Below the pieces are notes generated by a model, which did no database searches, had not been told where the DNA came from, and saw only the letters and a program-made list of their open reading frames with translations. 64,000 nucleotides of DNA from Allacma fusca (Eukaryota > Arthropoda > Collembola > Symphypleona > Sminthuridae): contig OX359248.1 in assembly GCA_947179485.1 (NCBI GenBank), forward strand, positions 32,621,378 through 32,685,377, given 5' to 3'. A program made the position numbers and the translations under genes. Positions 14,940-62,515 of the stretch are shown one piece after another. Each line of letters starts with the position of its first letter. Within the stretch, counting starts at the first letter, position 1.

Positions 14940-15076
14940 ACCGGTAAATTCTGGATAAAGGCCTTGGTTTCGTCTACTCTGCCTTGGGACTGTATTCGCA
15001 ACTGCTTCGGAGTCAGCATTCCCTTCGAATGGAGTTTTGTCCAGAGAACCAATCTATCCGGTTCGAAAAAGGACCA

Positions 15077-22278: not shown

Positions 22279-22329
22279 GCTAACCTAACCCGGGTATCCC
22301 GTTACCCGAATGGCCCAAAAAATTTATTT

Positions 22330-30212: not shown

Positions 30213-30245
30213 TATATAAGGACAGGTGAGCAGATTGAGAATTTA
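30213..30245 (+). promoter_or_regulatory. TATA box and start site of cuticle-like gene B
   Basis: TATATAAG at 30213-30220 with an A at 30245 in ATTTAGTTC, exactly the 32-nt spacing seen in copy A. Confidence 0.75.
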
Positions 30246-30321
30246 GTTCCAGCTTTGATCTTGATTTCTTATCATACTTTACTTTGAGTCTCCACTGAAA
30301 GACAAACTTCCAATCTTTAAA

Positions 30322-30962: not shown

Positions 30963-31085
30963 GCAAATCCGTTCCTTGAACACCTACTCTGATTTTGATA
31001 CGCGACGTGCCTCCCAACTTGTGATTTGTAATTTCTCTAGAAGTTTATTTCTTTAAGCTGTAAGTGGATCTAATTAGGTTCATTG

Positions 31086-31091
31086 AATAAA
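31086..31091 (+). terminator. Poly(A) signal of gene B
   Basis: AATAAA 124 nt after the stop codon, the same distance as in copy A. Confidence 0.7.
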
Positions 31092-37012: not shown

Positions 37013-37026
37013 TGTTACGGATATAT

Positions 37027-37060
37027 TATAAATAGAGTAGAATAAGCATAATCTAAGTCA
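37027..37060 (+). promoter_or_regulatory. TATA box and initiator in the putative LTR
   Basis: TATAAATAG at 37027-37035 and TCAGCA with its A at 37060, 33 nt downstream, match the arthropod TATA/TCAGT-type core promoter. U3 would be only about 47 bp. This is the likely start of the genomic RNA. Confidence 0.65.
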
Positions 37061-37308
37061 GCAAATAGTTTGGAAGGTCGTAAGCAGAGGCTACGTGACG
37101 CCAAACGCTAACATAACATAATTATAAGGAAATGATTCAGATTATTTAATAAACAATAAACTAAGAATAGGATAAGATTAGATTTAGATTAAGACACGTA
37201 GATTAAGTACAAGTTCTAATCTCGACTTCAAGCAAGCAACATCAAGAGGAGCCGCACCTAGAGTCCATTCCCTCCGGGATGGATCTCCACAGGTAGCAGA
37301 CGGGGCGA

Positions 37309-37330
37309 CATGAAATCGGGAGATTTCATG
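37309..37330 (+). other. RNA hairpin with GNRA-type loop
   Basis: CATGAAATC, loop GGGA, GATTTCATG: a perfect 9-bp stem closed by a GNRA-class tetraloop, within the transcribed part of the putative LTR. Confidence 0.6.
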
Positions 37331-37630
37331 AAGAAGAGATTCAGACTTCCAATTCTATTTGTGTTAAATGTTAATTGTTCAGTGTAAATTGTATCAGTTT
37401 AGGAACAATAAATTGGCCAAAAGTTAACAAAACGAACTACACACAGAACTCAATAAGTTCCATTTATTCATGCGTTTCCAACAACATCGGATTCCAGGAA
37501 TTCAGGGGATGGAACACCCGAACCTAGGCTACGTTGTCTATTACCCACACAACATCAATACCCGGGTAATACCGTACATAACATGATGTTTCTGCCAGGC
37601 CTTCGGGTTTATTTGGTAAGGACCCGGAGG

Positions 37631-37655
37631 ATCCGTAGGTCGGGGACCTGCGGAT
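37631..37655 (+). other. 11-bp leader hairpin
   Basis: ATCCGTAGGTC, loop GGG, GACCTGCGGAT form an 11-bp stem with one G-U wobble, about 150 nt after the putative LTR. It lies upstream of a donor-like AAG|GTAATA at 37995. The location is where retroviral RNAs carry dimerisation or packaging structures; the function here is inference. Confidence 0.5.
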
Positions 37656-38259
37656 GACCCTGTGACATAAGACCGAACTTTGTAGCAAGTAAGGTCGTTA
37701 GTCAAACAAAATTCATGGGATGGAAGTATGGGGCTCGACAAGGAGAAAATGCTTCATTTCTCTCCAGGGCCACCCGAAACTTCTCGTGAAAGGCAGTCAT
37801 AACATGCAACAATGTTACCTCAAGGAAGAAAATTTGGCCATTATCATCACGCGCGGATTCAAATAACAGTTCAGAAGTCCTAGTGCGGCACTATAAAAAG
37901 AACTATTTTTACGGCCGGAAATATTATTTTAAGTGACCAGTGAAATTGGGACTCTTTCCAACCGGAAAATTAGGGGAAGAGGACGTCCAATAAGGTAATA
38001 CTATTTTCTTTAAGGTTCATGAATTTCATGTTTAGGAGCATATTAATTTTGTCATGTAGTTACGAAGCGTAGCTAATATTCAGGAGTAATTAACCAGAAG
38101 TTAGGTACAAATCATATGTTTAAATTAGAAAATTGCGCATATATGTATATGTATTTTGTGGTTTTCAGAGTACATAGTAGGTGTGTGTGCATAAAAATTT
38201 TCACCAAAATTAGCTTCTTCCAGTAACATAAGTCTTCTTCTATCTTTTTAAACGCCTTA

Positions 38260-40010
38260 AGTGCCGTTGTGAGCGGAGGCATAAACAGTGTTCGTATTGT
38301 AAAGAGAACTATTCCGGCTGAAGGGCCGACGTTAATTGAGCGCAGTATAATAGTAATCTTTCTCTTCGTAAGTTTAAGGTTAATTTCAAAAAGGCCGTTT
38401 TTTTTGAGCGTTGAAATTCTTTTAACTCTTCAAATTACTTTTCAAAGTTTTGGGAAACCCCAGGCTAGGGGATAGGAACCCACAACACAATTAAAATCTT
38501 ACATTAAATTAGGACATTTTTTTATTAACTACAAGACTCTCAAAATTCACTTTCCAAGCTTAGTTTAAAGCAAAAATATGATCTACCTTTCAAGTAAATA
38601 ACTCAAAAATAATTTTCACTCTCTTCTTTCTCTACATCTTTTCTCCTTCTAGTATAAGTACATTTGAAGGGCCGAGTTATGAGCACAAATGTCTTTAACA
38701 TCTATAATCTCCAAATTACGTAATTAAGAGCCCCATGGCTAGGTGGCAAAACCCAATCAAAACTCTTTCGCTGAAAATTACTTTCTTTACCTGATGTGTA
38801 GGTTTACACGGGTAACAATAGGATCTATCATAAACTTTTCACAAACATCTTTTCTTCTTCCATCTTTCCATTTCTACCAGAAATGCCGTTTTGTGCGCTG
38901 GGTAATTAGGAAATAATTTGTCATGATTTTGGCAAATATTAAGATTTCAAAATCAATCCGGAAGGCCGAATGTGAGCACGGAGCATATCAGATTTCAGTT
39001 AGTCATTTTGCAAATCAAAACCTATATAACTCAGTTAGAGAGCATAGGTAGATCAGACCATCTAGAGATTATAGTACGTAAGGTGAACAAAATTTTCTCG
39101 GAAGGGCCGAATGTGAGCACCGAGGTGATTAGGACAGTTTTAATTAAGGTTTGAACAAAATTTAGTCCAAAGGGCCGAGGTACATTGAGCGTGGACACAT
39201 TGGCATAGTACGTAAGCATACATATAAGAAAATTCTCATCTACGTAGTTTTTAGGGATTCAAGGGCCGAAATGTGAGCGGAATCATTGTTGTGTATAAGT
39301 TTAGTATACGTAGAATCCGAGAGGCTAGGAAGATTAGGAGGGACCTTATGGTTTAGTAGGGTTCGAGTCATTCCAAGCACGGAGGTGATCGGATGGAGTG
39401 CCGACAAAAGTACCGATAAGCCTGTGACCTACTAGAGGTAATCGGAGAGGCTATGATTGACGCACCGATATAGGTATATGTTTGTAATGTGCCCGAGCTA
39501 GCGGATAGGTAACAGCAATGACTATTACTAGTAAGGAGGTCCATGGTTTAGTGGATAGGATAACAGGGGACATTCCAAAGCACGGATGTTCACTTTAAAA
39601 TCTATGTATGCGGTTTCCAGCTATGGCCATACATAGGGACTTTCATATTTATTACTTCTTCCATAGATGACTCATGGTTTTGAGTGCATCATAAGTTAGC
39701 CATTCTCGAAGGATTTTGCTAGAGTAGAGAGAATTGGCATAAGAAACCACAGGCTCATGGTTTTTGAGAGTTGGTTATAGGGATAGGAATTCAGTAAATT
39801 CTGGTGCTTTCAGTTTTTGCTGTCTACAACAGATACAAGCCTTGCTGATGGTAGGATCGGTTCAAGGAAGTTCTTAGGTACGAATTAGGACGCGAAACAT
39901 ATCCTTTGGGAGAGAAGGGTAATTAGTAGCGAGGAATACAGTCCTTATTAATTCTGGGAATCATTACAGGAGTATTTAGGGAATTTAGGCAACACCGGCC
40001 CGAATGTGAG
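38260..40010 (+). repeat. Interspersed leader repeats, two families
   Basis: Family 1, consensus about AAGGGCCGAATGTGAGCAC, occurs at roughly 38261, 38321, 38391, 38667, 38883, 38961, 39101, 39171, 39261 and 39996. The spacers between GGCCG and GTGAGC vary. Family 2, consensus about CCATGGCTAGTGGATAGGAA, occurs at roughly 38460, 38733, 39310, 39495, 39541 and 39757. They are dispersed rather than strictly tandem and diverged. The leader has no ORF of note. Interspersed short repeats in a genomic-RNA leader could be protein-binding or packaging elements. Confidence 0.65.
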
Positions 40011-40079
40011 GAGTGTTGATTGACAAAAAGACTGATAATTTAAGGAGTTAGACGCAACTAGCCACTGCAAATAAGTTAT

Positions 40080-40350
40080 TGTAAGAAGGTTAAGTTTTAA
40101 GGTGAGTAAGTTTAACAGCTTTAAGTTTTAAGGAAGATAGGATTAAGGAGACTAAGTTTAGAGAAGGTTAAGTTTTAAGGGAATTAAGTTTATGACAGTT
40201 TAGATTTTAAGGAAGGTTAAGATTACGAAAGGATTAAGTTTTAAGGGAAATTAAGAGTAGAAAGTTTAGGTTTTAAGGAAATTCAGGTGGTAACACCAGG
40301 AGGTACTCATTGGAAACGTTAGGATTACAGAGATTAAGTTTTAAGACGAT
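40080..40350 (+). repeat. AAGTTTTAAGG leader array
   Basis: About eight copies of (GGTT)AAGTTTTAAGG or close variants in 270 bp, at irregular spacing of 20-50 nt, immediately upstream of the gag region. Strongly A/T/G-biased and C-poor on the plus strand. No ORF. Confidence 0.65.
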
Positions 40351-40661
40351 TCACAGCTAAGGTTAGGGACGTTCAGGGATTGAACATTTAGATTATAAGT
40401 ACAGAAAATTTCTTTTCCAAGTCATCATCACCTATTGGCACAATTAAGTTTAACAACTAGGGTTACATAAGTATAGGCATACAAGGCAAAATTTTAGGAA
40501 ACGGGTTAAGTTGACATTTGGCATAAGTTTTAAGAAGGTTTTCAGGATTAAATTTGACAGAAGAACTCTCACAACCGTCAAAACAAATTCATAAAACCAA
40601 ACTCTACGAAACGCCTTAGCATTTTTCAGCCCATCCAGAAAAAGTTAGGACGTTTACAGGT

Positions 40662-43600
40662 ATGGAACCCGAAAAGAACCAACATCCATCAAGAAGGGAA
40701 CCACAACCTGCACCTTCAATACCATCTCGAAGGACTACGCGATCGGCAGGACCAGTGCCACAGAATGAAACAGGCTTGGAGGAGATCCTCGCCCGCAGGA
40801 AAGAGGAGAGGAAAGCAGCAAAAGCCAAAGCTAATACAGCAACGGCAGGTGTAGACCTCTCTTCAACATCTTCAGCTTCGACATCTACAGTCATGGAAGA
40901 ATCCGGCAGTACAACCCTGGCATTATCTGCACAAAGTCCATCGGGCTCGCAGGCCACGGGGCACGGAGATAATCCTGACAATAATGATGAGAGCATGGAT
41001 GTGTTCTTGGACACGGTGTCAACACCTGTAACAGGTACGGCAACCAGTCCTAAACGAACACCAACAGTATCGACAGCACAAACACCAAAGTTCTCAAAAA
41101 CAAAGGTGGTGCAAGGACAGAATCTCCATAGACTAGCGATGCAACGAGAATTACGCGACCTCGAGGTAACCAACCTGGAGGGCCAACAGGTCCAACAAGA
41201 CCGGGAGGTTGAAACCACAGGCGAATTCATGCTGAATGCTAGAGGAGACATGGTTTTTGTCAGTCACGATGCTGACCCCACGATCAAGGAAATCCTGTCG
41301 CAATTCAATCAACCTGAGGAAAGACCAACTAGTAGCGCTGCCATGTCATCATTTGAAATTCTCACGGATCCCGGAAGCAACCATACAAGCGTAGGGGAAG
41401 GCGAGCAAGGATTCGCAACTCCAGAAAGTGAGATGGAAGATGTGACCAATGAATCACCCAACAATGTGGTTGTCAGCAACCTGACAAACCCAGTTGACAA
41501 CGGAGACATTCCTAAAGACACGAGCACACAATCCCAACAGGATGTACAAAGTCAAGGAATGTGCAGCAAAGCTACTGGACAAACAGAACCACAGGTTAAT
41601 CAGCAAAGCTCAACGGAATTGGATGATTTGGAGGATTCCAACAGACCAATAGCTATAGCAACAAGTACACCAGAGATTATCCAGCAAGGGAATCTCAGTA
41701 CACACTCATCATTTAGGGACAATTTAGCAATAACTCAATCGGACGAGTCAACCGAACAGAGCGAACAAGGTGACTCACCAACAGGAGTGCCACGTACCAA
41801 TAACAGTATAGGGAGTGATCGTGACCAGGTCACTACTCAATTAAATCAGCAGTTATCAAACTTAAGCATCAGCGACCACTGTAAGGCTTCACAGTCGAAT
41901 ACTACAGTTTTTCAACAACTAGACATACAACAACTTGTACGAGATAGGTTTCTATCAAGACCATCTCCAGGATTTTCCAATAGAGGAGATATAGGCTTTC
42001 AAAGGACACTCAGCCGGGTGTCTGAGTCTACAGAACAGGAAGGCCCAGTCGAGGATCAGTCACCACCGATCAGAGAAGGGCAAGATAACATCCAAAGAGT
42101 GGAAGAAAATTTCGTACAATTAGTGACAGGTACAGGTGTGATAGTACCAGCGGGCTCGTTTCAACAATTAGTGACCACCGCAGGCTTCCAACGGAACTCA
42201 GTGGAAAATTTTCTGGTAGTTCGAGGATTGGAAGGACAGCTGATAGAGGTGTATCACAGGTTAGCTCAAAATCTTTATACAGGTACAGTCCAGTGGACAC
42301 ATTTTTTCCTTAGATTAGCTGAAGTCACCCACAGACGGGACAATAACAGAGATCCGAATAGGGAAGAAAGGGAAGTGCTACGTACACGTGCCTTCGAGTA
42401 CGGTCGGAACGTCAGGGACAACATTTTCATCCCCACAGACGTCATCCGAAACCTTTTAGAACACCGGGTATTATCGTTGAGAAGTCATCAGGCACACCAG
42501 GATAGCCAGATTTTCTTCAACGATACACCTAGGTATACGACCGTGATACAATCCGGAAGACTTAGCGAAAATCTAGAATTTGGTCAACAACAACAAGAAA
42601 GGCGAGTCAGCGACGAGAGTAGGTCAGGTCCAGAACAAGAACCAAATAACAACGGGACCACCCAACAAAGCGTAATCGACTCCAGTGCTGACGACATTAT
42701 TAGCAGGTACCTTAGGTACGACCAAAGAAACCCACCAGTAACACGGAATCCGGTTACGGGTTTATTAGAACCAGCATCTAGATCTACGCTAAGGACCATC
42801 TCAGGCGAACCTACAATACAACCCGTTACGTCACGAAGGATTTCACCAGAAAGCTTGAACACCAGCTCAAGCTCAATCAACAAGGCTATAGCCCAAGCAA
42901 TAGCCTCAACGACACTTCAAGCAGGTTTAACAACCCCTCGAAATCGGAAGTCGAGTAACTCCGATCGTGACCATCTCAGACCAAGTAACCAGGTGACGGA
43001 TAGTAACCAGGTAGATTACTCATCACCTAGGTCACAACTTTTCCAGAAATCGGTGAGAGGACATTATAGGGTAAAGAGTGCTGAGGAGAACAGCAACTTA
43101 AATCCCAGGACCAGTCCACAAGGGATTACGACACGTGAGAGACCAAGCAACAGCCGTTGCGAGACAGCCATACAGAAGGGTAGCCCAAGAGCACCCACTA
43201 CATCACCCACAGTCCAGACAGGTAATCAGACGCCAGCAGGGAACTCTACGGCACAACCGAGAGGAACCCCGAGGTCCAGTAATTCCTGTCGCTCAACACC
43301 CGCAACCGGTGATAGGGGGCAATCAAGCCAACACAGCAACTCTCACGAAACAACACAGCAGATTAATCCAGTACACATCTCACCAGCCAGTCAGAATAGA
43401 CAGGTGTCAACGGAAAATACGCCGAGAAATCGACCAACTCAACCTAACCTGCAATTTAGACCTCAACCCACCCAAGACGATTTGGAGACACCAACTGAGG
43501 AGGTCGAGACCACCCAAATTGGTAGTACATCACAGGCTACCGTTAAGAGGGATTTAACAACAACAAAGTTGTACGTCAACACAGATTCCACCCAGGCAAA

Positions 43601-46600
43601 CGGTAACGAACAACTGGTACACCGAGTTTATCAGTCACCAGGAGGTCGAATCTACGTACATCCACCCGTGCACGCGTTGCGAGCACCGCCACTTGACGTT
43701 AGTGAAACAGCCTTAAGAACATTGGTGCAAGTAGGGAGACAACTACGGGAACAGAATCCGTCATTGACTATTGCAAATACCATCAGAAATTCTGACACAG
43801 GTACTTACTATCAGGCATTTAGACCCCAAGACAGGTTTACCGTCTATCAATCACCGAGAGGCTCGTTATACAACAGCCTACCGATAGGACGCACAGGTAT
43901 ACACCGCCACAGTTTACGAGGTCGAGACATCCTGCAACGAGCAACCAACAACGACAGGACCATCATAGAAGGTGGAGAGCTTGTAACAGCACCCCAACCA
44001 CCACCTTCAGAACAAACATCTAGAAGCAACGAGTCGTACGTCCAAGGCGACACCTTAAGGTCACGGACAGCAACACCTGCATCTACGACACGTGCAGCAA
44101 CGACTTTTGCAGTACCAGCTAGGCCAACCGGAAGGTTCATAACCAGATCGGTAAACCGACCAACGACACCGACAGCTCCAGCTGTCCCCATCAGACCAAA
44201 TTCAGCGGTAGCAGGACCATCTCGAGTAACAACAACTCCAACCACAAGTCAAGGTAAAGTCAATTGGCTTGACGACTTGCAATACGGAGTTAACATTTGG
44301 ACAGGACCAAGTGGCAGAGTATACACCAGCGAGAACGAAGCAACCGAAGACGAGTTAGTACCAAGCAGGATAACAGTAAGACAATACTCTAAGATCGCGC
44401 GACAACAAGACAGATTCAGAAACCAGGGGGTAGAAAACGAAGCAACTTGGACAGGTCAAGTGAGACGCCTGATCTACTATAACAGAAGGGACGGAATCAT
44501 ACAACGAAGGTTTAGACCAGCTAGAGACTCAAACTTTGAAGCGTTTGCAGCTACAAGAGCTGAACACGAAGAGATTGTTCTGAGTGAACACCCGATATTT
44601 ACCTTCTGGAACATAATCACCCGAAGATCTTTAGATCCAGGGCAGATCTCCAGCTACATCGCACCCAACTTCAGACTTTACCATCGACACATCAGTCTAC
44701 CGAACGGCGTTCGCAGACAAAGGGTACCACCAGGCTTCTTGGAAGAAATCGAGAACGAACACGACCACCAAGAGGCACTGAATAGATTAATTCACGACCC
44801 TAACGTGGAAATCTTGAGTGACACGTCCAGCGAGGAAGAAGAAGAGCAGGTAGTACAGAGAGACACTCCAAGACGTGAGAGTGGTCAGCATAACAGTGCA
44901 CAGTCTAGTGAGGAGACAGACCACATTTTTATTGGAGTTGACGAAGAGGACTTCATCATCCCAGAAGTACCAGGTCAATTCACGATAAGAATCTCTATAG
45001 ACGACGCCTACGACGCAGCGTTCAGAGCAATTGAAAGAGACGAAGAAATACAAGAGGAAGTCCGATTTGTGGATAATACCGGAGAAACTCACTTCTTCCC
45101 AAGAATCCGACTTCGAGACCTTAGTCCGGAAACTCAAGTTGTACTTACTCAAGTCAGAAGGAGACGTAAACCCTTACGAGCACGCCGTCAAATTGGAAAT
45201 AACCAACCCAGACCACCAGGCCCAGGACCAAGTGGATCAGGGAGAGGAAACCAACCGAGAGGAGCTAATAACAACAACTCCCACAACCAGCGACCATCAC
45301 AATCAAGGTCAAATCCAGGTCGAGGAGGCTCAAGAGGAGGTAGACACATTGGAGGAAGACAGAGAGCAAGGAGTGACCCCGGAAGTTCCGGAGGAAGTAG
45401 CTCATCATCCAGCTCCAGTAGCAGTAACTCAAGTAACCCTCATGACTTTGAAGCCTTCGACAACTGGAGGAATAGACAGATTGTGAACAGAAATAACATC
45501 TTCAACCAGGTCAACGTTAACATCATCAACCCATACGTACCAATCAACCCAAATCAGGGGATACGTATTGAGGAAGTTGCAGACCAAGAACAAGTACGAA
45601 TAATTCCAAGGAGACATCTGGACGACGACATGACCGCCCTCATGTTTCCCAAAGTAGAATTCAAACCGGGTGTAGATGACCCAGAGACAGCCTTCGCAAC
45701 AGCCGAACTTCAGACCAACAGGTTCGGAGGAGATACCATCATAACCAGGATGCAATACGTACAGATCATCTTTGACCCACCCGTCAGGGATTGGATCAGA
45801 AATTGGATTGCCGAACGAAGATTACATGAGGAACTACCCTACGACACCATTAACTGGGACGAATTCAGGGAGGAATTTTTAATAAGGTACAGTATCACCG
45901 ACCAAATGATACGTACACTAATGGAAAAGCGAAAGATGAATACGGATGAAGATCCATGCGCATACATAGATGCGAAATTAGCACTAATCAATAGAGTCGA
46001 CAGATTTATGCCCGAACTGGAGAAAATCAGACTCTTACGCGCAGGTTTAACATCCGAATACATAGTTTTCTGCCGAGGATGGACAGCAGGGACTGTAGCA
46101 GATTTCATAGAGGGAATCAAGCAGTATGATGAAGACCGAAAGACGGACGGCGCGGAATCTATTGAGACAAGATTTGCCAAAGTCCAAGAAATGTTGGAGA
46201 AATTAACCTCCGGAATGAAACCCGTTCCAGCAGAAACAACTGTAGTGAAAATAGCTGCAGTGAGAGAACAACAGGACTATCGGAGACCTGAGAATAGACC
46301 TAATGACCAACGAGGACGAAGCCCAGGTCAGGGAAACTTCAACAACTCACGGAATGTCAGCCCAGGTTACAGTAACAATAACAACTACCCGGACAGGGGA
46401 CGTAACAACCAAGGGTATGATGACCGAAGAAATTATGGGAACCGAGGTAGATCTCCAACACCTGAGAGATTCTACAATAATCAAGACAGGAGTAGGCCTC
46501 AGTACAGAAATGATGGCAACAGCTCCAACAACCAAGGTTACCCTCAGCGGAACCAAAACTTCGGATCTAGACAAAGTCCGAACCGACAATACTACAACAA

Positions 46601-47228: not shown

Positions 47229-47248
47229 TTGAAGATATCCAAGAAAGA

Positions 47249-54445: not shown

Positions 54446-54455
54446 AAACGAATGA
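54192..54455 (+). CDS. Overprinted coiled-coil ORF 5
   Basis: 87 residues, same frame. Residues 10-62 are a strong coiled coil (LRELEQIRQTTERHSATLR, then IQQELQQVQEEIRELKKQ), followed by an acidic tail. It runs 10 nt past the pol stop. Its TGA (54453-54455) overlaps the ATG of the next ORF as ATGA, the classic termination-reinitiation overlap used by compact viral genomes. Confidence 0.5.
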   Translation: MSSRKTIPEGLRELEQIRQTTERHSATLRTRRVQIQQELQQVQEEIRELKKQSKHLKKEALKKPEKVDDTQLVPEKGREDLDQSENE

Positions 54456-54778
54456 GCACCACGAGATATTTAACAACAATACCGAACTGTGTTAGTTTTG
54501 GTCAAAGCGAGATTGATCTCAAAATTAGAGACCGTATAAATCTCATTAGTTACCTAATACGACAAGGTCGTAGGAGAATCCGATACGTAGGTACGCACAC
54601 AATCATTAAAGCAGATTACTGTAAAGTATTTTATCTCCAATCAGATGTCAGAGAACAGAGGGTCACGTGCATCCGGGTCTCGAACCAACGAGACTCCACG
54701 CCAAGACGCCCTACCCGCCGTCGACAGGGACGACGACGATCGACCACGTTACTGGACCCAATACGTGAGTCAAATTGA
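54452..54778 (+). CDS. Small arginine-rich ORF between pol and ORF3
   Basis: 108 residues. It starts in the ATGA overlap with coiled-coil ORF 5 and overlaps the first 134 nt of ORF3 in another frame. It has two arginine-rich patches, RQGRRRIRYVG and RRPTRRRQGRRRS, that could serve as nuclear-localisation or RNA-binding motifs of the type found in small regulatory proteins of complex retroviruses. It lies in the same frame as pol, two codons after the pol UGA, so it could alternatively be a read-through extension. No homologue recognised; the regulatory role is speculation. Confidence 0.5.
   Translation: MSTTRYLTTIPNCVSFGQSEIDLKIRDRINLISYLIRQGRRRIRYVGTHTIIKADYCKVFYLQSDVREQRVTCIRVSNQRDSTPRRPTRRRQGRRRSTTLLDPIRESN
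54643..54644 (+). promoter_or_regulatory. Splice-acceptor-like AG abutting the ORF3 start
   Basis: TTTTATCTCCAATCAG|ATG: a pyrimidine-rich stretch ends in CAG directly before the ORF3 ATG at 54645. Similar AGs sit two bases before the gag ATG (40658-40659) and one base before the ORF4 ATG (61781-61782). The donor-like AAG|GTAATA at 37995 is a candidate shared donor. Confidence 0.45.
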
Positions 54779-57700
54779 AGTGGAAATACCACAAGCAAAA
54801 ATTTTACCAAACTCAGATACGGGACGACTGGAAGTTGTTCTCAGAGTAGACGGGAAGTTACCCCACAGGATTATCATCCAAGGACGAGATGGACGAGAAA
54901 TCGTAACTCATTCAGTACTCATCGGAGCTCTCAGAAAGCCTAGAGAGTTAACACTAGATTATCGTATATTACGACGAGAACCGCATTTTTGCGGGTCAAT
55001 AAATTTTCCGGAGCAGCAGGTGGAAGTTGACAAAGGCGAGCGAGCGCCAGATGATCTTGTTTACCTTTTTAAAGGGCAAGAATTTAATCCCACTCCCATA
55101 CGACGACAGATCCCTATCTGTAGAACACGTAATAGACAGCCAGATGACCCATGGCTAGTCCAAAATTACAGGCAAGAAAAGGACGTGCCCGGACAAAAGA
55201 ATCCAAGGGGAGATTATGAACATGATCCATGGGCGTTTACTCCAGGGCTTCAATATGAACGAGGCAAGACCAGTCGAAGCTCATCCCGGAAAGTGATGGG
55301 AGCCGACCCTATTTGTGGAGTAACCCGGGTCAACATCCCCGAAATTAGTGAATGGTTACCGCAACATGAAGAACAGGTCGAGGACGTAGCCCATAGAATC
55401 AGTAGACGTATTGATGACAACTATGGACCCGATCTGAGACGAGGGAACTTGGAGGACCGACGAAGGGAACCTCCGAGATTCGCAGCCTACTCGGCGCACA
55501 TGGTACCAGCCGGGAGAGGCCGCGGGCGGGCCATCACTACTGGAGAAAGTTCGAGCAGACACCACAGAAGCTCAAGAGAAAGTTCAAGGGAAAGACACAG
55601 CTCTAAGGACAGCAGGACCAGGAAGCGGGAGACAGAGTCGTCATCGGAGAGGAAGAAGCGACGGGAAGACGACAGGTCAAGGAGCCGCTATGATAGTCCA
55701 GCGCGGTCAAGGAGCAGGAGAGAGTCAACCCCACCACCTTCACCATTTCTATCGCCATCGGCGAGAGATTATAGGGACCGAGTGGAGAGGGAGTCAATAC
55801 TGACGGCACCCATAGCAGCTCCAGCTTTAAGCTACACAGCGGTCACAAAGATGCCACCGCCAACAATACCGGTCAATAGCGAACCACCTAAACCACAGCG
55901 TGCAGTTTGCATCGCTCAAAGAGAAAGACCCGTGGAAGTACCCATAGAGACTCCACCATCAGTAGCAGTGATACCATGGAGTGAAGAAGTAGCCACGGAC
56001 ACAGCTACAACAGCGGACAGGGATACCGCCAATGAATCTTCTTCAGACTCAGAAGAGGAAGAGACAGTACCCATCCAAACCTGTAGTAGGAAAGGATGTA
56101 AAAGGGTACGACAAGTAATTGCAACCGACAGTGGACCAGTGGTACAACAGGAATGTGAACATCATGCAAAGAAACGTGCAAAGAAGGAGAAGAAGGTCAA
56201 GAAGGAGGCTCAGATGACCATCTTAGAGCTATTTGGACAGAACACAGCACCAGCCCAACCACCGGCGAAATGGCAGTCGAACATCGTAAAAATTGGAGAA
56301 GACTCCAGGAAGGCAGGGAAGCATGAGGAGATGGTAAACCGAATAAAAGATCTCGGGGAAATCATCCGCAACCTTGCCAGACAAAATGTCAATGCAGACA
56401 CTGCGAAAAAGCAGAAGGAAGGATTAATGAAAGAATTAGCACGCCACCGCCAGGAATGGATAAAGTGGAGAAATGATAACGACTTTCACTTGGTATGTGC
56501 TGAGTCAAAGATAGACCTTCAAACCAGAGAATTACCTCCAGCACACTTTGAACCAACGAACATTCCAACGTCAACAGCTACATCCGGAGAGCTAGAGCGT
56601 TTGCTCGCTCAGGAAAAACGAAATGGTCCAGAAACTGCAAGCACAACAGGAATGGCAACGGAAATGCCACCCTCACCAGGACAAAACGTCGAAGTTGCAA
56701 CATCTGAGCTATCTATAGCCGAACAACACAACGACCAGAGCAGTAGCTCAGAGGATTTTGAGGTGATCAGATCAAAGAGAAGACCTAAAGATCGAGAATC
56801 ATCAATAACTTCGGATACAACGGAAATTGTTAACCACCACCAGCTTTCATTGGCTGATTTTGCCAACTCACCCCAGGACGGAACCGTCATTCTTAGTGAC
56901 GACGAGGAACTACGACAGCCAACCTCATCAATCCAAACGCCACCTCACACGCCGGAAATGGGACGTGGAGGAGGAGGAAGACGAGGAGGACCCATACCTT
57001 ACCTCGGTAACAGTTGGCTATCATTCTTATTAATGTTCGGTTTAATTACATCTGCGGTAGGACAATCAACCTTGAGAAAGGAATTGACGGGACACTACGG
57101 ACCATATCCAACAACCCGGGCATCACATTACCAGTGGTGGACCCGATTGGAAACCGAGAATCTAACCAGTCCAAGAGGCTTTGACCATGTCAGCCTAGAC
57201 GTTGAAAATAAGGAAGACTCAGAGGAAATCGGACACTATGACCCTTACGGCCAACGGGAATGCCCACCGGTCGGAAATTCAGCCGTACGGTACCAAGGTT
57301 TCGGCGCAGCCACAGCGCATCGACTCTGGCAGAATGGAGTAGTACGAGGAGTAGCAGGAGCCGTAGGCATGTGTACCACGGGAATGGTCATAGTAGGAGT
57401 CTATACCAGCTCAATCCTAGACGCAGTCAGGAGATGGAATAAACCACTCAAAACAGTCAAAATACCACAGGACTGGGTACTCATTGAGTCCCAACTACCA
57501 GACCAACGACCCATCTGGATGATAATGCCCGTCAACGCCAGTGAGGAAAAAGAATTAGAAGATTTTCTTAAGGAAGATCCTACAGCAACAGAAATATCTC
57601 CGAACTTAATAGCATTACCAGGTGATATCCAAAGGAATGCTCATTACCTCAACGAAACTTCTGTAGCCAAAGTATGGAACCAAGCTTTAGGCAAAGAAGT

Positions 57701-60700
57701 GGACGCGGAAGAATCCGAAAACGGGAGAGAGCGACGACATGCTCCTGAACCCACTTCGGAGGAAGAGGAACGACGACAAAAGATTCGAGACCAACGGAAA
57801 TTACCGCAAGCTATTTGGTTAATGTCACAAGCAATACGTGACGGTTACCATCTAACAACAAGAACGTTACAATCAGTCGCAATGGACTTAATCACAAAGA
57901 CAATCCCGTTACCACTTCATACCGAATACGAAATTTGGAAGGAGTACGAGTTACAGTACGGAATGTTCATCAGCAAAATCATCAAAATTTTGGGACTTAA
58001 GAACACACATACACGTACCAGGCGAAGTATCTTGGCAAAAGACCAGATAAATAATCTACAACGCCAGATCCAAAACAACCCTCACAGTATAACAAAAGGG
58101 GAAGACTATGTTCATCCCACTGAGGAAATTGCAATAGGTGAAGTTGTACACTTCGCACTAGCAACAACAATCACAGAAGCAAACTGGACGATAGTTTTGC
58201 TCATACCACACATATACAACGGAGTTGACCATCTCGAAGAAAAAGAACTCAAGGGATGGGAGACAAAGGCACATGCCAACGCCTCACAAACCCACCCACT
58301 CTTCCAGCGAACGTCGGAACGAGCAGCCAGAGAACGGCAGAGGCGAGATGCATTCGTAGGACCGACCAACGCATGGTCACCCGTCAGTTATAGCAAACAA
58401 TTCTTAAAACAACAGCTACAGCTTATGCTGGCACGAATCGAGGAAGAGGAGGCTCACTCATCGTCAGGAAGACCTACAGGGATTATTCAACAGCTTGTAA
58501 GATTTACCCTCAGAATGGTAATCTATATTGGCACGTCCGTCGGAATGGACTTCGGAGGAAACCAGGACCCTATACGGAAAGGTGACCCAGGAAGAAGCCA
58601 CCCACGAAGGACAGAGGGAGCAGAAGGACCGGTTTTGGCCTCAGAAGAGGAACCGGCTGTGCCAACGGAACAAGCTATGGAGGCTCAAGAAGAAGGAACC
58701 GGCACATCATTGAATGTAATCAAGGAAGAAGTCTTAGACGACGAGGAGAAGCCACCATTGGAACATCAGGTAGATAGTTCATCAGATAACGAGACAGACA
58801 GTAAATGGGTGCAGACCAGATGCGAATACTGCCCACTCAAACATGGCCATAAGCCACCCGTACGACCAAAGACCAAGTTAGCAGCACATGAAGCTTGGCA
58901 AAGACAAAAAGACATTCCTGTACAATACATCCGAAGGAGTAGACCCGAGTTGGACAGGTTGTATGGAAGAGACAACGCTCCAAACTGTACATTCCAGTAT
59001 AGAGGACGACGACGAGGTCCAGAGCCAGAAATTGAACGACCCAGGGTTAGAGTATACTCACCCATTAGGACTGTAATATTCAACGATACAAGGGACAGAC
59101 GAGGAGCAAGGTCACCGTCACCCGGACCATCCACGATAACAGGACAATCTACACCACCCATTGAAGACAAACTGAAGTCCAGACGAGCTAGACAACGTCA
59201 ACGAAAGGTGGAGTTCAAGGAAGAACGCCAGGAAAACCCCCCAGCTCCAACACCGGAAGATCCACTGGCACAATCCGACTCACCTGATGTAAGATTCGTT
59301 GATTTAGCTCACGTATCATTTTACATAGGAGTCCGTGGATGGATGGTAGCACCAAGTTGGGAAGATGAGGATGCAGAAATAGTCATCTTTACCAACCCGA
59401 ACGAGACACAGCTATACAGCCAACTGGATCCGGTACGACTTCAAGTAAGAAAGATGGTGGAAAGGGCCAATGACCCATTGGACCACTCACCACCGCCAAG
59501 ATTTCCGGACCAAGTAATGGAAGATATATCTGGAGACGAACGCCATGGCCGGATAGAAGAACAGTACTCCAGGAGAACCAACTACTTCAGCAACAACATG
59601 GACACCCGAGAAAGATCCACCATGTGTCCTCATTGTTACCAGAAATCTACCATCGACCCAGAGAGATTTCCAACATATAATATCTCACATCGTTCGACCA
59701 ACAGTCCAGAGCAAAATCTGGTGAGATGGCTCAACAGAATGTACAGGGAGACATTTATCGAGAGACTTGACATCCACCAACAACCTACCCAACCACCTCA
59801 ACTACGACTCGAGCAGTTACGAAGGGCGCTTAGCACCTTAAGCGAACCCAGAACAGATGCTCATGAATCAAATATAGAATACGCCGAACACCAGGCAGGA
59901 ATAGACTACAACAATCACGGAGAATTAATCCGGGAAAGAAGGGCATTGCTATATGATGCAATGGACCACCCCACCGATTATCGCCGACTAGACCCAAGGG
60001 AGCGAGACCTGCTCATCCTATACGGGCAAAGTCGAAGAAACGTACCAATGGAAAACACCCGTCTGGAAACGATGGCAGGAGACATGAACATCTCACCAGG
60101 GGAAATGATACCGAGACTTTGGACAACATTGTTCAATGGTCAGCGAGGTATTGATAACCATCAAGTACCAACATATCTAACATGTCGGGAACATCAGGGA
60201 GTAATGCAAGGACTCACGGGAACCGAGCTACGCCGATTAATTACTCAGATGTGGTTTGACATAGGAACTCAGCCAACCTGGCGAGAACAAGAAATATGGA
60301 TAAATAGTTTCCTACTGAGAGGAGACGCCATCACCGGACGTGGAGAGAAAGCTTTACAACAACTAGCAAGTATACCAATACACATGCTAAGTTTTCAAGA
60401 ATTCGCGAGTATGACCGAAAGGCTCATAACTCTTTATCATCAGGACGAGGCAATTCAGGAGTGGCGACAATTTGGAGCGATGAACCAAAGCGGCAGAAGT
60501 CAACCCAATCCAATAGACGACATAGAAGAAGAACTAGGACAATGGGAAGACTGGATATTCGCAATGAAACTAGCAGGGGAAGGCCAAAAGCCAACTACCC
60601 TATACGCTAGAAAACTAAAAGGAGGAGTAGCCACCCTAAGACAACCCCGGAGAACAGGTTCTTTCAGAGACCTAAACGAACTTGTCACGATACGAATATG

Positions 60701-61214
60701 GCAAAGAGAACATTTTCACAGGATTCGGGAGCAAATTAGCAACCGTGGAGACGGACCAAGTTACAAACCATATCATTTATCACCAAGAAATGAAAGACGA
60801 CCAGGAATAACACCAATACATATGGTACCAAGCGCTATAGATCGATTCCAAACACCCCAATGGCGATCAGTTGTCATTGATGGAAGACCAGATGAACCGG
60901 ACATAATAAATCTCATACGAACCCTCAGAGGTCGAACAGGAATCGAAATAGTTTTTCGTGACCTCGGACATGATTTTTTACAGGAAGAACTCAGGAGAGA
61001 CCCAGTGACACAACAAAGAACCAGCTATCTTTCCATAACAAACCCTGTGGAGCATAGAAGGCTAATGGATCAGTTATGGGAAAGATCGGAACGAGCAAGA
61101 TGGGACCCGGAGATTTTATCCGAGAACAGATTCGCAATCATATCATTCCGAACACTAGCGGAAGGAGAGGAGGAGACAGGCACCCTCAGAGGGCCGTCCG
61201 AGGAAGACGATTAG
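54645..61214 (+). CDS. ORF3: giant multi-domain protein with RS-like region, internal signal sequence and furin-type sites
   Basis: 2189 residues with no recognised homologue. About 1-230 is an ordered-looking N-terminal region. About 290-380 is an Arg/Ser-rich RS-like tract (SRHHRSSRESSRERHSS). At 480-507 is a Cys/His cluster (C-x4-C ... C-x-H-H) beside a Lys-rich patch; about 520-620 is helical. At about 788-806 is a hydrophobic segment, WLSFLLMFGLITSAVGQ, resembling an internal signal peptide. A second hydrophobic segment lies at about 898-928 (GMCTTGMVIVGVYTSSIL). N-glycosylation sequons occur nearby (NLTS, NASE, NETS, NWTI, NASQ). Furin-type sites are R-x-R-R at 1028-1031, 1124-1127 and 1231-1234. 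A third hydrophobic stretch lies near 1280-1300. Further CxxC motifs are at 1393 and near 1660. The middle third resembles an envelope polyprotein and the flanks look nuclear or cytosolic, so the chain may be a fusion or may be spliced. Confidence 0.75.
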   Translation: MSENRGSRASGSRTNETPRQDALPAVDRDDDDRPRYWTQYVSQIEVEIPQAKILPNSDTGRLEVVLRVDGKLPHRIIIQGRDGREIVTHSVLIGALRKPRELTLDYRILRREPHFCGSINFPEQQVEVDKGERAPDDLVYLFKGQEFNPTPIRRQIPICRTRNRQPDDPWLVQNYRQEKDVPGQKNPRGDYEHDPWAFTPGLQYERGKTSRSSSRKVMGADPICGVTRVNIPEISEWLPQHEEQVEDVAHRISRRIDDNYGPDLRRGNLEDRRREPPRFAAYSAHMVPAGRGRGRAITTGESSSRHHRSSRESSRERHSSKDSRTRKRETESSSERKKRREDDRSRSRYDSPARSRSRRESTPPPSPFLSPSARDYRDRVERESILTAPIAAPALSYTAVTKMPPPTIPVNSEPPKPQRAVCIAQRERPVEVPIETPPSVAVIPWSEEVATDTATTADRDTANESSSDSEEEETVPIQTCSRKGCKRVRQVIATDSGPVVQQECEHHAKKRAKKEKKVKKEAQMTILELFGQNTAPAQPPAKWQSNIVKIGEDSRKAGKHEEMVNRIKDLGEIIRNLARQNVNADTAKKQKEGLMKELARHRQEWIKWRNDNDFHLVCAESKIDLQTRELPPAHFEPTNIPTSTATSGELERLLAQEKRNGPETASTTGMATEMPPSPGQNVEVATSELSIAEQHNDQSSSSEDFEVIRSKRRPKDRESSITSDTTEIVNHHQLSLADFANSPQDGTVILSDDEELRQPTSSIQTPPHTPEMGRGGGGRRGGPIPYLGNSWLSFLLMFGLITSAVGQSTLRKELTGHYGPYPTTRASHYQWWTRLETENLTSPRGFDHVSLDVENKEDSEEIGHYDPYGQRECPPVGNSAVRYQGFGAATAHRLWQNGVVRGVAGAVGMCTTGMVIVGVYTSSILDAVRRWNKPLKTVKIPQDWVLIESQLPDQRPIWMIMPVNASEEKELEDFLKEDPTATEISPNLIALPGDIQRNAHYLNETSVAKVWNQALGKEVDAEESENGRERRHAPEPTSEEEERRQKIRDQRKLPQAIWLMSQAIRDGYHLTTRTLQSVAMDLITKTIPLPLHTEYEIWKEYELQYGMFISKIIKILGLKNTHTRTRRSILAKDQINNLQRQIQNNPHSITKGEDYVHPTEEIAIGEVVHFALATTITEANWTIVLLIPHIYNGVDHLEEKELKGWETKAHANASQTHPLFQRTSERAARERQRRDAFVGPTNAWSPVSYSKQFLKQQLQLMLARIEEEEAHSSSGRPTGIIQQLVRFTLRMVIYIGTSVGMDFGGNQDPIRKGDPGRSHPRRTEGAEGPVLASEEEPAVPTEQAMEAQEEGTGTSLNVIKEEVLDDEEKPPLEHQVDSSSDNETDSKWVQTRCEYCPLKHGHKPPVRPKTKLAAHEAWQRQKDIPVQYIRRSRPELDRLYGRDNAPNCTFQYRGRRRGPEPEIERPRVRVYSPIRTVIFNDTRDRRGARSPSPGPSTITGQSTPPIEDKLKSRRARQRQRKVEFKEERQENPPAPTPEDPLAQSDSPDVRFVDLAHVSFYIGVRGWMVAPSWEDEDAEIVIFTNPNETQLYSQLDPVRLQVRKMVERANDPLDHSPPPRFPDQVMEDISGDERHGRIEEQYSRRTNYFSNNMDTRERSTMCPHCYQKSTIDPERFPTYNISHRSTNSPEQNLVRWLNRMYRETFIERLDIHQQPTQPPQLRLEQLRRALSTLSEPRTDAHESNIEYAEHQAGIDYNNHGELIRERRALLYDAMDHPTDYRRLDPRERDLLILYGQSRRNVPMENTRLETMAGDMNISPGEMIPRLWTTLFNGQRGIDNHQVPTYLTCREHQGVMQGLTGTELRRLITQMWFDIGTQPTWREQEIWINSFLLRGDAITGRGEKALQQLASIPIHMLSFQEFASMTERLITLYHQDEAIQEWRQFGAMNQSGRSQPNPIDDIEEELGQWEDWIFAMKLAGEGQKPTTLYARKLKGGVATLRQPRRTGSFRDLNELVTIRIWQREHFHRIREQISNRGDGPSYKPYHLSPRNERRPGITPIHMVPSAIDRFQTPQWRSVVIDGRPDEPDIINLIRTLRGRTGIEIVFRDLGHDFLQEELRRDPVTQQRTSYLSITNPVEHRRLMDQLWERSERARWDPEILSENRFAIISFRTLAEGEEETGTLRGPSEEDD

Positions 61215-61783
61215 AAACGTCACAGAGGATAATAACCTGACCATTCCATCCAGGTCATGGTATAAAGAGAAAAGAGAACTAGCGGGGAAAAGCAGAAGCC
61301 AAATTACCTGATGACGGAAGAAATTCCCGAAGGGAATGTAAAGTGTAGATTATTTCGCAAGAGAGGATCTACGATAAAACATTTTTAAGATCTTATGCAG
61401 CATCAACCATCGGGATTACGGCGGATGTTACATAATGATCACCATAACAGAATAGTTAGAAAAGAAAAACAAATAAAAATAAAATACAAAATAGAAAACA
61501 AAACAAAAACAACTTACTTACTAACACATTTTATAGAGTTCATAGAATAGAAATACTAACAAAGGATTATGTCACCGGAAGTGGGACATACGGATTACAA
61601 CATCGGAATTAGGAAAAGAATTCTCTTTCGCAATCGGAAGATGAAAACACAAACAATATACTGATATAAATAAGAGACTCTTAAACCAGAGTACTCATTA
61701 TAAGCTCAGCACCCACGGAGAGCTCAAATACTTGAGACTACTCAGAAATACGAAACCAAAAACAGATACAAAATTTTCCAAGG
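61215..61783 (+). other. Intergenic region between ORF3 and ORF4
   Basis: No ORF. Contains an A-rich stretch with overlapping AATAAAAATAAAATAC near 61470, possibly a poly(A) region for the upstream transcript, and the ORF4 promoter listed separately. Confidence 0.5.
61665..61697 (+). promoter_or_regulatory. Possible internal promoter for ORF4
   Basis: TATAAATAAG at 61665-61674 is followed by TCATTA with its A at 61697, a 32-nt spacing identical to that of the two cuticle-like genes in this window and close to the 33 nt in the LTR. It would give an 87-nt 5' UTR for ORF4. Confidence 0.5.
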
Positions 61784-62515
61784 ATGGAATACAAGTGGTA
61801 TATTCTTTTGAGCCTTGCAATAACTCTAATTGCAATGGACGTTTCCGAAACCAGGCCGATAGCACAACCAAGTCCAGAACCATGGGGAGGACCATTGATG
61901 GCAGCCCTAGGAACTCAAGTCGGAAAATGGTTCGCAAATTACATGGTACCAGCCATAACCGTCGGAAGCGGAGCTATTACAGCATCAGTGTTATCACAAA
62001 AGGACCCAGTAGTACATATACTACACCACAAAGATGACGGGAAACTAGCCGTAGTGCAGTACGACCCGAACGACCCAAACGTAGAAGCCCAGAGAATCAT
62101 GGAGAGGAATCAACAAATGGCTCTACTACAACCTCAACAACAATTCATACAAAACCAACAGCCCACGATGCTGAGGGATAGCAGACCACCATGGATGGAC
62201 CAATTCACGGAAATAGATTGGAAACCCAATGAGGTTCCAACATCAGACACGGATTATACCGTAGTCATTATTAGTTCATTCGGTTGCATTACCACAATAG
62301 TGATATTCATATTCACAGTAATACTGTACCGAATCCGGACGCAGAAAAAGAAAGCAGATCAACAAACACCGAATGAGAGAGAATTAGACAATGTTGCAGA
62401 CACAGCAGCATTAGTCCAAAATTCGGTAGAGCAGTTAGTCGGATGCAGAATAGTGCGGCCAAACACACAACAACAGCCTAGACGACACACAACCAGAGCA
62501 ACCGTACAACTATAA
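61784..62515 (+). CDS. ORF4: small type I membrane glycoprotein-like protein
   Basis: 243 residues. An N-terminal signal peptide (about 1-20, KWYILLSLAITLIAMDV) is followed by a short Gly/Ala-rich hydrophobic segment at about 53-70 (VPAITVGSGAITASVL), a Gln-rich middle, a single transmembrane helix at about 160-182 (VVIISSFGCITTIVIFIFT) and a basic cytoplasmic tail starting YRIRTQKKK. Layout matches a small type I envelope-like protein. It has few cysteines and no recognised fold, so envelope function is inferred from topology and its 3' position, where env genes sit in retroviruses. It may act with ORF3 products. Possible own promoter at 61665 and poly(A) signal at 62819. Confidence 0.7.
   Translation: MEYKWYILLSLAITLIAMDVSETRPIAQPSPEPWGGPLMAALGTQVGKWFANYMVPAITVGSGAITASVLSQKDPVVHILHHKDDGKLAVVQYDPNDPNVEAQRIMERNQQMALLQPQQQFIQNQQPTMLRDSRPPWMDQFTEIDWKPNEVPTSDTDYTVVIISSFGCITTIVIFIFTVILYRIRTQKKKADQQTPNERELDNVADTAALVQNSVEQLVGCRIVRPNTQQQPRRHTTRATVQL

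What the first reader, a model, noticed from the sequence alone, without database searches (positions are those of the whole stretch)
37013..62515. A giant, apparently intact retrovirus-like Ty3/Gypsy element of more than 25 kb
Four large frames (2188, 2398, 2189 and 243 codons) are open with no internal stops, against 5-12 kb for ordinary Ty3 elements. Canonical Gag and Pol domains are present, but each protein carries hundreds of extra residues. Two further genes lie downstream of pol where env would be. Giant Ty3 elements such as planarian Burro and plant Ogre are known; this gene layout is not one I recognise.
Basis: partly seen in the sequence, partly recalled or inferred. Interest (0 to 1): 0.92.

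Follow-up and report, generated by a model that had tools for sequence, protein, structure and literature searches.

The report
Giant intact retrovirus-like springtail element
A chromosome that by its length belongs to a springtail carries a 28.7-kilobase retrovirus-like jumping element, one of scores of closely similar copies in that genome, with two genes that have no convincing match in the libraries searched and a row of repeated, predicted RNA hairpins at its front that likely mark its RNA for packing.

Summary
The window lies on a chromosome whose length matches chromosome 4 of the springtail Allacma fusca. The element runs from 37013 past the window end to window-equivalent 65676: 28,664 bp, two identical 571-bp LTRs, ATAT target duplication, purine tract. 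ORF1 is Gag, ORF2 is PR-RT-RH-IN with a ~600-aa insert, ORF3 (2189 aa) and ORF4 (243 aa) are orphans. It is a family: of the 99 best ORF3 matches scored, 75 keep an uninterrupted full-length frame. A second subfamily (~50% protein identity) shows strong purifying selection on ORF3.

New here: (1) a likely -1 frameshift signal joining Gag to Pol (GGGAAAC, 7-nt spacer, G5/C5 hairpin); (2) nine leader hairpins with a near-invariant core and sequence-variable but pairing arms (40 of 45 Watson-Crick pairs; 0 of 100,000 permutations), kept with compensatory changes in the other subfamily, best read as a multi-copy packaging signal; (3) an ORF3 segment with a signal-like peptide, three shared furin-like sites, three shared glycosylation sequons and a weak TM-like stretch: a predicted envelope protein. 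Mechanistic steps are inferred; there are no RNA data. A new variant of a known kind.

The parts
37013..37583 (+). 5' LTR, 571 bp, TGTTACGG...ACATAACA; identical 3' LTR lies outside the window at window-equivalent 65106-65676
   Evidence: 571/571 identity and ATAT duplication on both outer sides
37009..37012 (+). target-site duplication ATAT (5' side)
   Evidence: ATAT also follows the 3' LTR; a second copy, C8:28.72-28.75 Mb, also has ATAT on both sides
37584..40661 (+). long leader between LTR and gag, 41 upstream ATGs
38254..39284 (+). array of nine leader hairpins (starts 38254, 38316, 38385, 38662, 38876, 38956, 39097, 39165, 39256): arm-AAGG-GCCG-n-TGAGCR-arm'
   Evidence: regex and arm test, pair counts, covariance model finds these nine and nothing else in the window at E<=5 (the nine were in the model)
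39990..40020 (+). tenth, deviant hairpin (CAACAC/GTGTTG arms); not found by the model
40662..47228 (+). ORF1, Gag, 2188 aa: ~1600-aa N-terminal extension, weak capsid match ~aa 1720-1797, CCHC knuckle aa 2153-2169
   Evidence: Pfam Retrotrans_gag E 0.01 below cut-off, zf-CCHC just above cut-off
47195..47223 (+). predicted -1 frameshift signal: GGGAAAC (47195-47201) in the right phase, 7-nt spacer, G5-ACGCA-C5 hairpin (47209-47223), inside the 46-nt ORF1/ORF2 overlap 47183-47228
47249..54445 (+). ORF2, Pol, 2398 aa (first ATG): PR 34-132, RT 383-543, RNase H 616-743, ~600-aa insert, zinc-binding H2C2 1420-1479, integrase core 1498-1589, C-terminal module 1733-1767, ~600-aa low-complexity tail
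   Evidence: Pfam; PDB best match Ty3 Gag-Pol; insert by comparison with relatives
54645..61214 (+). ORF3, 2189 aa, orphan protein
   Evidence: no convincing match; dN/dS of the window copy against four others 0.09-0.17
57012..58544 (+). envelope-like segment of ORF3 (aa ~790-1300): signal-peptide-like 790-806, hydrophobic 903-919, shared furin-like sites 1028, 1124, 1231, shared sequons 964, 1003, 1180, weak TM-like 1284-1300
   Evidence: comparison with subfamily B copy L052; the stricter TM scan flags only aa 899-917
61784..62515 (+). ORF4, 243 aa: hydrophobic N-terminus like a signal peptide (read by eye) and one TM segment (aa 162-180)
   Evidence: hydropathy, translations; dN/dS 0.15-0.175 within subfamilies; no convincing match in Pfam, PDB, PHROGs, NCBIfam

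Best explanation
This is a full-length 28.7-kb Ty3/gypsy-type LTR retroelement with identical LTRs that likely still copies itself as a packaged RNA, its Pol predicted to arise by -1 frameshifting, its leader hairpins likely serving as the packaging tag and its ORF3 predicted to carry an envelope-like glycoprotein. Shown: LTRs, target duplication, purine tract, domain order, open frames, many closely similar copies, selection on ORF3 and ORF4, covarying hairpin arms. Inferred: an LTR-driven 28-kb RNA is translated to Gag and, by slippage at GGGAAAC before a G5/C5 hairpin, to Gag-Pol; Gag binds the hairpin array and packs that RNA among spliced and cellular RNAs; PR processes the precursors, RT/RH copy the RNA and IN inserts it at ATAT. 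ORF3 and ORF4 would come from spliced RNAs and give membrane proteins that help particles leave or enter cells. The primer is not identified.
For: 571-bp LTRs identical, ATAT duplications, purine tract; 17 LTR pairs 26.9-28.3 kb apart among 40 scored LTR matches, 16 of the 17 with equal scores; one of the other pairs was fetched and is 570/570 identical with ATAT flanks. ORF3 C-terminal piece: the 99 best matches scored of 238 candidates are all at least 95% identical, 75 of 99 in an uninterrupted frame of 2201 codons or more. Pol: best PDB match Ty3 Gag-Pol, E 6.3e-103 (Ty3 RT-RNase H chain alone 1.7e-72), next 9.3e-44 and then 4.4e-30 or weaker (60 of 223 rows shown). Frameshift: phase and overlap; hairpin in 17 of 20 junction stretches. 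Leader hairpins: 40 of 45 Watson-Crick arm pairs, permutation 0 of 100,000, mean 17.8; 21-row alignment 95.9% paired against 18-48% for slid structures, 44 double changes. ORF3 dN/dS 0.076-0.168 in the 6 of 10 comparisons that could be computed.
Against: No RNA, protein or particle data. Subfamily B has GGAAAAC, not a textbook heptamer. The leader hairpins taken singly fold no better than shuffles (z -1.45 to +0.30), and the core pattern was defined after seeing the copies. The 81-nt frameshift region as a whole does not fold unusually well (z -1.27). The sequence after the 5' LTR (TGATGTTTCTGCC) is not a usual TGG primer site. 41 upstream ATGs precede gag. ORF3 has no homology to any Env, its signal-like and last TM-like stretches fall below the TM threshold, and the structure models failed (pLDDT 34-35). 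24 of 99 ORF3 copies are broken, and one of 8 A junctions has a broken pol frame; whether all four frames are open together was seen only for the window copy.
Confidence: 0.62

Rival explanations
1. The leader hairpin array works not in packaging but in expression: as an export element or internal ribosome entry region that lets the unspliced 28-kb RNA leave the nucleus and be translated despite 41 upstream ATGs.
For: 41 upstream ATGs before gag; several RNA forms are needed if ORF3 and ORF4 are made from spliced RNA, so intron retention must be managed (inference).
Against: Nothing here decides: repeated short hairpins with an invariant core and free arms look like repeated protein-binding sites, which suits export as well as packaging; the position between LTR and gag is the classical packaging place (established knowledge of retroviruses).
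Confidence: 0.27
2. ORF3 is not an envelope protein but a set of intracellular accessory domains; the hydrophobic stretches and basic sites in its middle are incidental.
For: No Env homology; two of five shared basic sites (356, 1763) lie outside the segment; Arg is 10.4% of the protein, so basic sites come easily, and the TM scan flags only aa 899-917; ~790 residues precede the signal-like stretch and ~890 follow the TM-like one.
Against: Three of four shared sequons and three of five shared basic sites fall in the quarter of the protein between the signal-like and TM-like stretches, in copies only ~50% identical.
Confidence: 0.35
3. The copies are no longer mobile; identical LTRs and open frames reflect recent gene conversion or a single past burst now silenced.
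For: Copies on one strand 28.2-28.3 kb apart look like tandem elements sharing an LTR (coordinates), so recombination seems to act on the family.
Against: Target duplications flank both copies tested; 16 of 17 full-spaced pairs score equally within the pair, while scores mostly differ between pairs, as expected of separate recent insertions.
Confidence: 0.2
4. Assembly artefact or fused fragments.
For: None found.
Against: Same layout and spacing at many loci on several chromosomes.
Confidence: 0.01

Closest known systems
Burro giant Ty3/gypsy elements of planarians (as described in PMC6431247, passages read)
   Same: Giant Ty3/gypsy LTR elements with oversized coding regions, extra domains, an env-like segment and many copies; Burro internal region given as up to 25 kb, here 27.5 kb.
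   Different: Burro-1 has a 4873-aa ORF1 with an env-like stretch in frame between gag and protease/pol, and dUTPase, BIR, ankyrin, BCL2 and MATH motifs are named for the group; here gag and pol are separate frames, the env-like segment is in ORF3 after pol, and none of those domains was reported by Pfam. Burro is longer overall (>30 kb with LTRs).
Ogre elements of plants (PMC6431247, passages read)
   Same: Giant Ty3/gypsy elements with extra ORFs.
   Different: The review puts Ogre size down mostly to 1.9-6.5 kb LTRs; here the LTRs are 571 bp and nearly all the length is internal.
Errantiviruses (gypsy group, insects; recalled, with the search listing)
   Same: Gag, Pol and a third gene after pol with envelope-like features; short AT-rich target duplication.
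   Different: ORF3 is 2189 aa with no detectable Env homology; a fourth gene follows.
Ty3 (yeast)
   Same: Best PDB match of Pol; PR-RT-RH-IN order.
   Different: Ty3 is about five times shorter (length of Ty3 recalled); here a ~600-aa insert between RNase H and integrase, two extra genes and a leader hairpin array.

Membership tests
Ty3/gypsy (Metaviridae) LTR retroelement | PR-RT-RNase H-integrase order in Pol | tested here: met
   Pfam hits in that order (rve 32.2 bits, just under its 32.6 cut-off)
Ty3/gypsy (Metaviridae) LTR retroelement | RT closest to Ty3 rather than retroviral RT | tested here: met
   Ty3 RT-RNase H chain E 1.7e-72; the other RT entries shown 9.3e-44 or weaker. The tree gives no supported clade for the window RT
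Ty3/gypsy (Metaviridae) LTR retroelement | Paired LTRs with target duplication and purine tract | tested here: met
Ty3/gypsy (Metaviridae) LTR retroelement | tRNA primer-binding site after 5' LTR | tested here: inconclusive
   TGATGTTTCTGCC follows the LTR, no TGG start; self-priming check gave only a 7-nt match; host tRNAs were not compared
Ty3/gypsy (Metaviridae) LTR retroelement | Capsid domain and CCHC knuckle in Gag | tested here: inconclusive
   CCHC 20.9 bits against a cut-off of 20.8; Retrotrans_gag E 0.01, below its cut-off
Burro | Env-like segment in one frame between gag and pol, with dUTPase, BIR, ankyrin, BCL2 or MATH domains | tested here: not met
   separate frames; none of these domains reported at E 0.1 for the whole proteins or E 10 in pieces (HMMER filters drop most weak matches)
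Errantivirus | Env gene homologous to gypsy/baculovirus F-type Env after pol | tested here: not met
   no Pfam, PDB or database homology for ORF3, no Env-type hit for ORF4; distant relation not excluded
Retroviral-type packaging signal | Structured RNA between LTR and gag | tested here: met
   covarying hairpin array
Retroviral-type packaging signal | Binding by Gag and need for packaging | not testable with these tools
   needs RNA-protein work
-1 programmed frameshift signal | XXXYYYZ heptamer in phase, 5-9 nt spacer, downstream structure | tested here: met
   window and subfamily A; subfamily B keeps the hairpin but has GGAAAAC, so the heptamer is not met there

The most novel reading that the evidence does not exclude
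A new lineage of giant, currently spreading retrovirus-like elements of springtails, with the longest internal region yet described for an LTR element, that selects its 28-kb genome by a multivalent array of about ten covarying, bulged-A hairpins, and builds particles with an unknown envelope class carried inside a 2189-aa protein plus a small second membrane protein.
Probability: 0.35. Interest if true: 0.88.

Novelty: new variant of a known kind. Interest (0 to 1): 0.75.

Why it matters
Retrotransposon size is thought to be limited near 10 kb by transcript length, RT processivity and packaging (PMC6431247, passages read). Here many young 28-kb copies say that this limit is being passed repeatedly in one animal, and the hairpin array gives a concrete, testable way in which so long an RNA could be chosen and packed. 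The two orphan genes under selection are candidates for an unknown envelope system. The host's genome elimination (PMC10427803, passage read; that it is paternal is recalled) makes the spread of such an element a further question.

Tried and rejected
Rejected: ORF3 as a duplicate of Gag despite nearly equal length (no blastp match); relatives of the four proteins in the left 40.6 kb of the window (none); a known Rfam family in the leader (nothing at gathering level in the window; in the leader at E<=2 only IS009, E 0.00085 at 27.8 bits against a cut-off of 117 and on the other strand, and FTX_2, E 1.9); relatives of Pol in viral contigs (15 pattern matches, none confirmed). Weak library matches taken as chance: ORF4 ECSCR E 0.0022, ComGE, Protocadherin (all below cut-off), PDB thioredoxin reductase E 0.33, NCBIfam E 0.034 and 0.065, PHROGs E 0.23 and 0.26, no phage match; ORF3 pieces Presenilin E 7.1, PHROGs E 0.14-0.39, L052 IFT121 zinc finger E 1; ORF2 insert NCD2 E 0.038. 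ORF4 and ORF1 were not put to the 5.8-billion-protein search (its three searches went to ORF3, ORF2 and the ORF3 profile). Led nowhere: single-sequence structure models of ORF3 aa 1690-2110 and 785-1310 (pLDDT 34.2 and 35.4; no fold search made on them); self-priming by the LTR (longest match 7 nt); splice sites (a few candidates read by eye, none tested; the L021 donor listing was misindexed and is not used); the RT tree (44 of 46 homologs passed the length filter) gives no supported clade that holds the window's RT. Not obtained: genome-wide count of the hairpin.
Full report
WHERE IT IS. The window is G000:C12:32621378-32685377 in a genome of 392,743,791 bp in 91 contigs. Contig lengths seen (81.89, 75.61, 66.08, 58.81, 55.59, 48.06 Mb) match the six chromosomes of the springtail Allacma fusca, assembly qeAllFusc8.1, to about 0.01 Mb (81.9, 75.61, 66.08, 58.81, 55.59, 48.07; 392.8 Mb in 95 scaffolds; PMC10427803, passages read); the window is chromosome 4. 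The host name is an inference from lengths, and a strong one.

THE ELEMENT. 37013-37583 recurs without a difference just right of the window (L009:1184-1754, window-equivalent 65106-65676). Both outer sides show ATAT, both LTRs run TG...CA, and GAAGAGGAA stands directly before the 3' LTR. Total 28,664 bp, internal region 27,522 bp. PMC6431247 (passages read) gives up to 25 kb for the internal region of Burro and >30 kb in total, so this internal region is longer and the whole shorter. The primer site is unclear: the LTR is followed by TGATGTTTCTGCC.

GENES. ORF1 (2188 aa): CCHC knuckle at aa 2153-2169 and a weak capsid match at about 1720-1797 (E 0.01, below cut-off), so about 1600 residues precede the usual Gag parts. 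ORF2 (2398 aa): protease, RT, RNase H, zinc-binding and core integrase domains in Ty3 order (rve is just under its cut-off, 32.2 against 32.6 bits); Ty3 is the best PDB match. In P0004 the RNase H and integrase matches are 16 residues apart, in ORF2 about 600. The top database Pols are 29-39% identical over 24-41% of the query (first five rows of 46), and the RT sits on a long branch without a supported sister (45 rows). ORF3 (2189 aa) and ORF4 (243 aa) have no convincing match: ORF3 none at E<=0.01 among 7982 scored candidates, the three-row ORF3 profile none at E<=1 among 7986, none in PDB at E<=10, only chance-level Pfam and PHROGs matches; ORF4 only library matches below cut-off or at E 0.03 and above. 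ORF4 was not put to the large protein search.

A FAMILY, YOUNG AND LARGELY OPEN. ORF4 gives 155 match rows from 150 scored candidates of 214, mainly in a group of 80-100% identity (A and a smaller 80% subfamily) and one near 51-54% (B); five of the rows listed have stops, and the listing is not complete. A 421-aa ORF3 piece gives 99 scored matches of 238 candidates; all 99 are at least 95% identical (the best were scored, so B was not reached) and 75 of 99 lie in an uninterrupted frame of at least 2201 codons, 22 in a shorter frame, 2 with a TGA (counted by eye). Leaders and first gag parts of eight A copies are 93.8-94.8% identical to the window in DNA, so copies are closely similar rather than identical. 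Of 40 scored LTR matches (300 candidates), 34 form 17 pairs 26.9-28.3 kb apart, 16 with equal scores within the pair; one more pair is 3.6 kb and one 22.5 kb apart, two matches are single. The one unequal 28-kb pair may be two 3' LTRs of tandem elements. One of the other pairs was fetched (C8:28.72/28.75 Mb): identical over 570 bp and again flanked by ATAT.

SELECTION. ORF3 of the window against L053 (80% subfamily, 392 aa) and B copies L051 and L052: dN/dS 0.086, 0.147, 0.168, the last two at dS 2.6-3.0, near saturation; against A copy L050 0.104; L050 against L053 0.076; L051 against L052 0.150; the other four of ten comparisons had saturated dS and gave no ratio. ORF4: 0.148 within A, 0.175 within B, saturated between. 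Gag N-terminus, window against B: 0.31-0.33 for L022, L027, L028; L021 gave 0.684 on a poor 19%-identity alignment because its longest frame there is another piece; against A copy L010 0.332. ORF3 is thus under strong constraint although an orphan.

FRAMESHIFT SIGNAL. The pol frame is open from 47183, overlapping gag by 46 nt, in the -1 frame. GGGAAAC at 47195 is in the phase a -1 shift needs, 7 nt before GGGGG-ACGCA-CCCCC (the whole 81-nt fold is not exceptional, z -1.27). Of 20 junction stretches, 17 keep the anchor and hairpin (8 of A with GGGAAAC, one of these with a changed loop base; 9 of B with GGAAAAC); L038, L039 and L047 lack the anchor. A 46-nt overlap with shift -1 was read in 7 of 8 A copies; L031 has a broken pol frame there. 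In B, L043, L044 and L045 show a 175-nt overlap with shift -1, and the frames listed for L040, L041, L042, L046, L048 and L049 overlap by 247 nt, also with shift -1 (whose own print stopped at 200 nt; a second L043 row there, with shift +1, lies within pol). Conservation is partly forced by two overlapping codes.

LEADER HAIRPINS. Between LTR and gag stand nine copies of GCCG-N(2-9)-TG[AT]GC[AG], each preceded by four nt (mostly AAGG) and framed by arms that pair: 40 of 45 positions are Watson-Crick, against a permutation mean of 17.8 and maximum of 36 in 100,000; 300 simulated leaders give 0.017 cores on average; the rest of the window has two cores on this strand, none on the other. Pattern and register were set after seeing the copies. 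Other 20 copies: 15 stretches (8 A, 7 B) carry 5 to 10 cores, L018 one (the stretch ends there), L020 one whose arms do not pair, L019, L023 and L029 none. In 21 aligned rows 95.9% of cells pair, 44 cells changed on both sides (0 of 500 shuffles), slid controls 18-48%; the number of pairs with a double change (5) and of pair types (15) do not exceed the shuffles (344 and 93 of 500 as high). The rows are related copies, so cells are not independent events, but equivalent hairpins of A and B differ by compensatory changes (GATTC/GAATC against GATTG/CAATC). RNAalifold adds pairing of GCCG with UG(A)GC, leaving one bulged A; those inner positions never vary there, so they neither support nor oppose it. 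A covariance model finds exactly these nine in the window and 145 in the 20 stretches, all on the element's sense strand (rows of the window, L010, L018 and L021 were in the model, and the rest are close copies). A tenth, deviant copy is at 39990. Each hairpin alone is not unusually stable. A near-invariant core on variable arms, repeated in the classical packaging place, is best read as a multivalent binding site for the element's own Gag; export or translation roles remain open.

ORF3 AS A PREDICTED ENVELOPE. Window and B copy L052 are about 50% identical. They share hydrophobic stretches at 790-806 (ending SAVG/SAIG, signal-like), 903-919 and about 1284-1300, furin-like sites at 1028, 1124, 1231 (also 356 and 1763 outside) and sequons at 964, 1003, 1180 (also 1947 outside). 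The stricter scan flags only 899-917, and no signal-peptide program was available. An Arg/Ser-rich stretch at about 300-360 and a Cys/His-rich stretch at 480-508 lie before it. The most conserved part is 1700-2000 (60-65% identity; 901-1000 also reaches 64%), of unknown fold. How a signal 790 residues in would be used is unsolved; foamy virus Env has a shorter cytosolic leader (recalled). ORF4 keeps a hydrophobic N-terminus and one TM segment in both subfamilies.

LITERATURE. The listings (12, 16, 47 and 57 show only part of their hits; one had none) showed no description of a giant LTR element in Allacma fusca or of such a leader array; titles and starts of abstracts were seen, and the library holds only open-licence PMC papers. 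From PMC6431247 and PMC10427803 passages were read; all other papers were seen in search listings only.

VERDICT. Mobility, packaging and envelope function are inferences.

Noticed in passing
1484-6044 and 27174-32403: Long direct repeats (95.6-96.5% and 86.7% identical pieces) 25.7-27.1 kb apart, as of an older giant LTR-type element or a segmental duplication, holding a nested insertion.
   Followed up: partly
9044-15500: Young Pao-type LTR element on the minus strand: repeats 9044-9468 and 15076-15500 99.8% identical, frames of 889 and 917 aa.
   Followed up: partly
21863-22278, 18460-18734 and 19783-24921: Inverted repeats: 139-nt arms 98% complementary with 138 nt between, a palindrome, and 179-nt arms 91% complementary 4.8 kb apart.
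   Followed up: no
28140-28564 and 23439-23620: Tandem repeats of 39 bp and 33 bp units.
   Followed up: no
G000:C8:12175694/12203994 and C1:24797093/24825285 (ORF4 positions): Copies on the same strand 28.2-28.3 kb apart, suggesting tandem elements that share an LTR (LTR matches for the first).
   Followed up: partly
G000:C1:79632100, 79881881, 80110907: Three ORF4 copies of an 80%-identity subfamily at about 230-250 kb steps on one chromosome, perhaps a segmental amplification; L018 shows its LTR about 3.5 kb closer to ORF4.
   Followed up: partly
L052, ORF3 insert near window aa 1337: Subfamily B ORF3 holds an extra Cys-rich stretch with several CxxC pairs, zinc-ribbon-like by eye (Pfam only IFT121 zinc finger, E 1).
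   Followed up: partly
40082-40283: Degenerate tandem TTAAG-rich repeats just before gag, variable in length between copies.
   Followed up: no
38465-39790: A second recurring leader motif around GGATAGG/GGCTAGG, tRNA D-arm-like by eye.
   Followed up: no
40650-40670: CAGGTATGGA at the gag start is kept in both subfamilies and could be a splice donor or acceptor overlapping the start codon.
   Followed up: no
40001-62000: Strong A over T excess on the coding strand (AT skew 0.19-0.35 in 2-kb steps) throughout the genes, against -0.09 to 0.14 in 1-40000.
   Followed up: no
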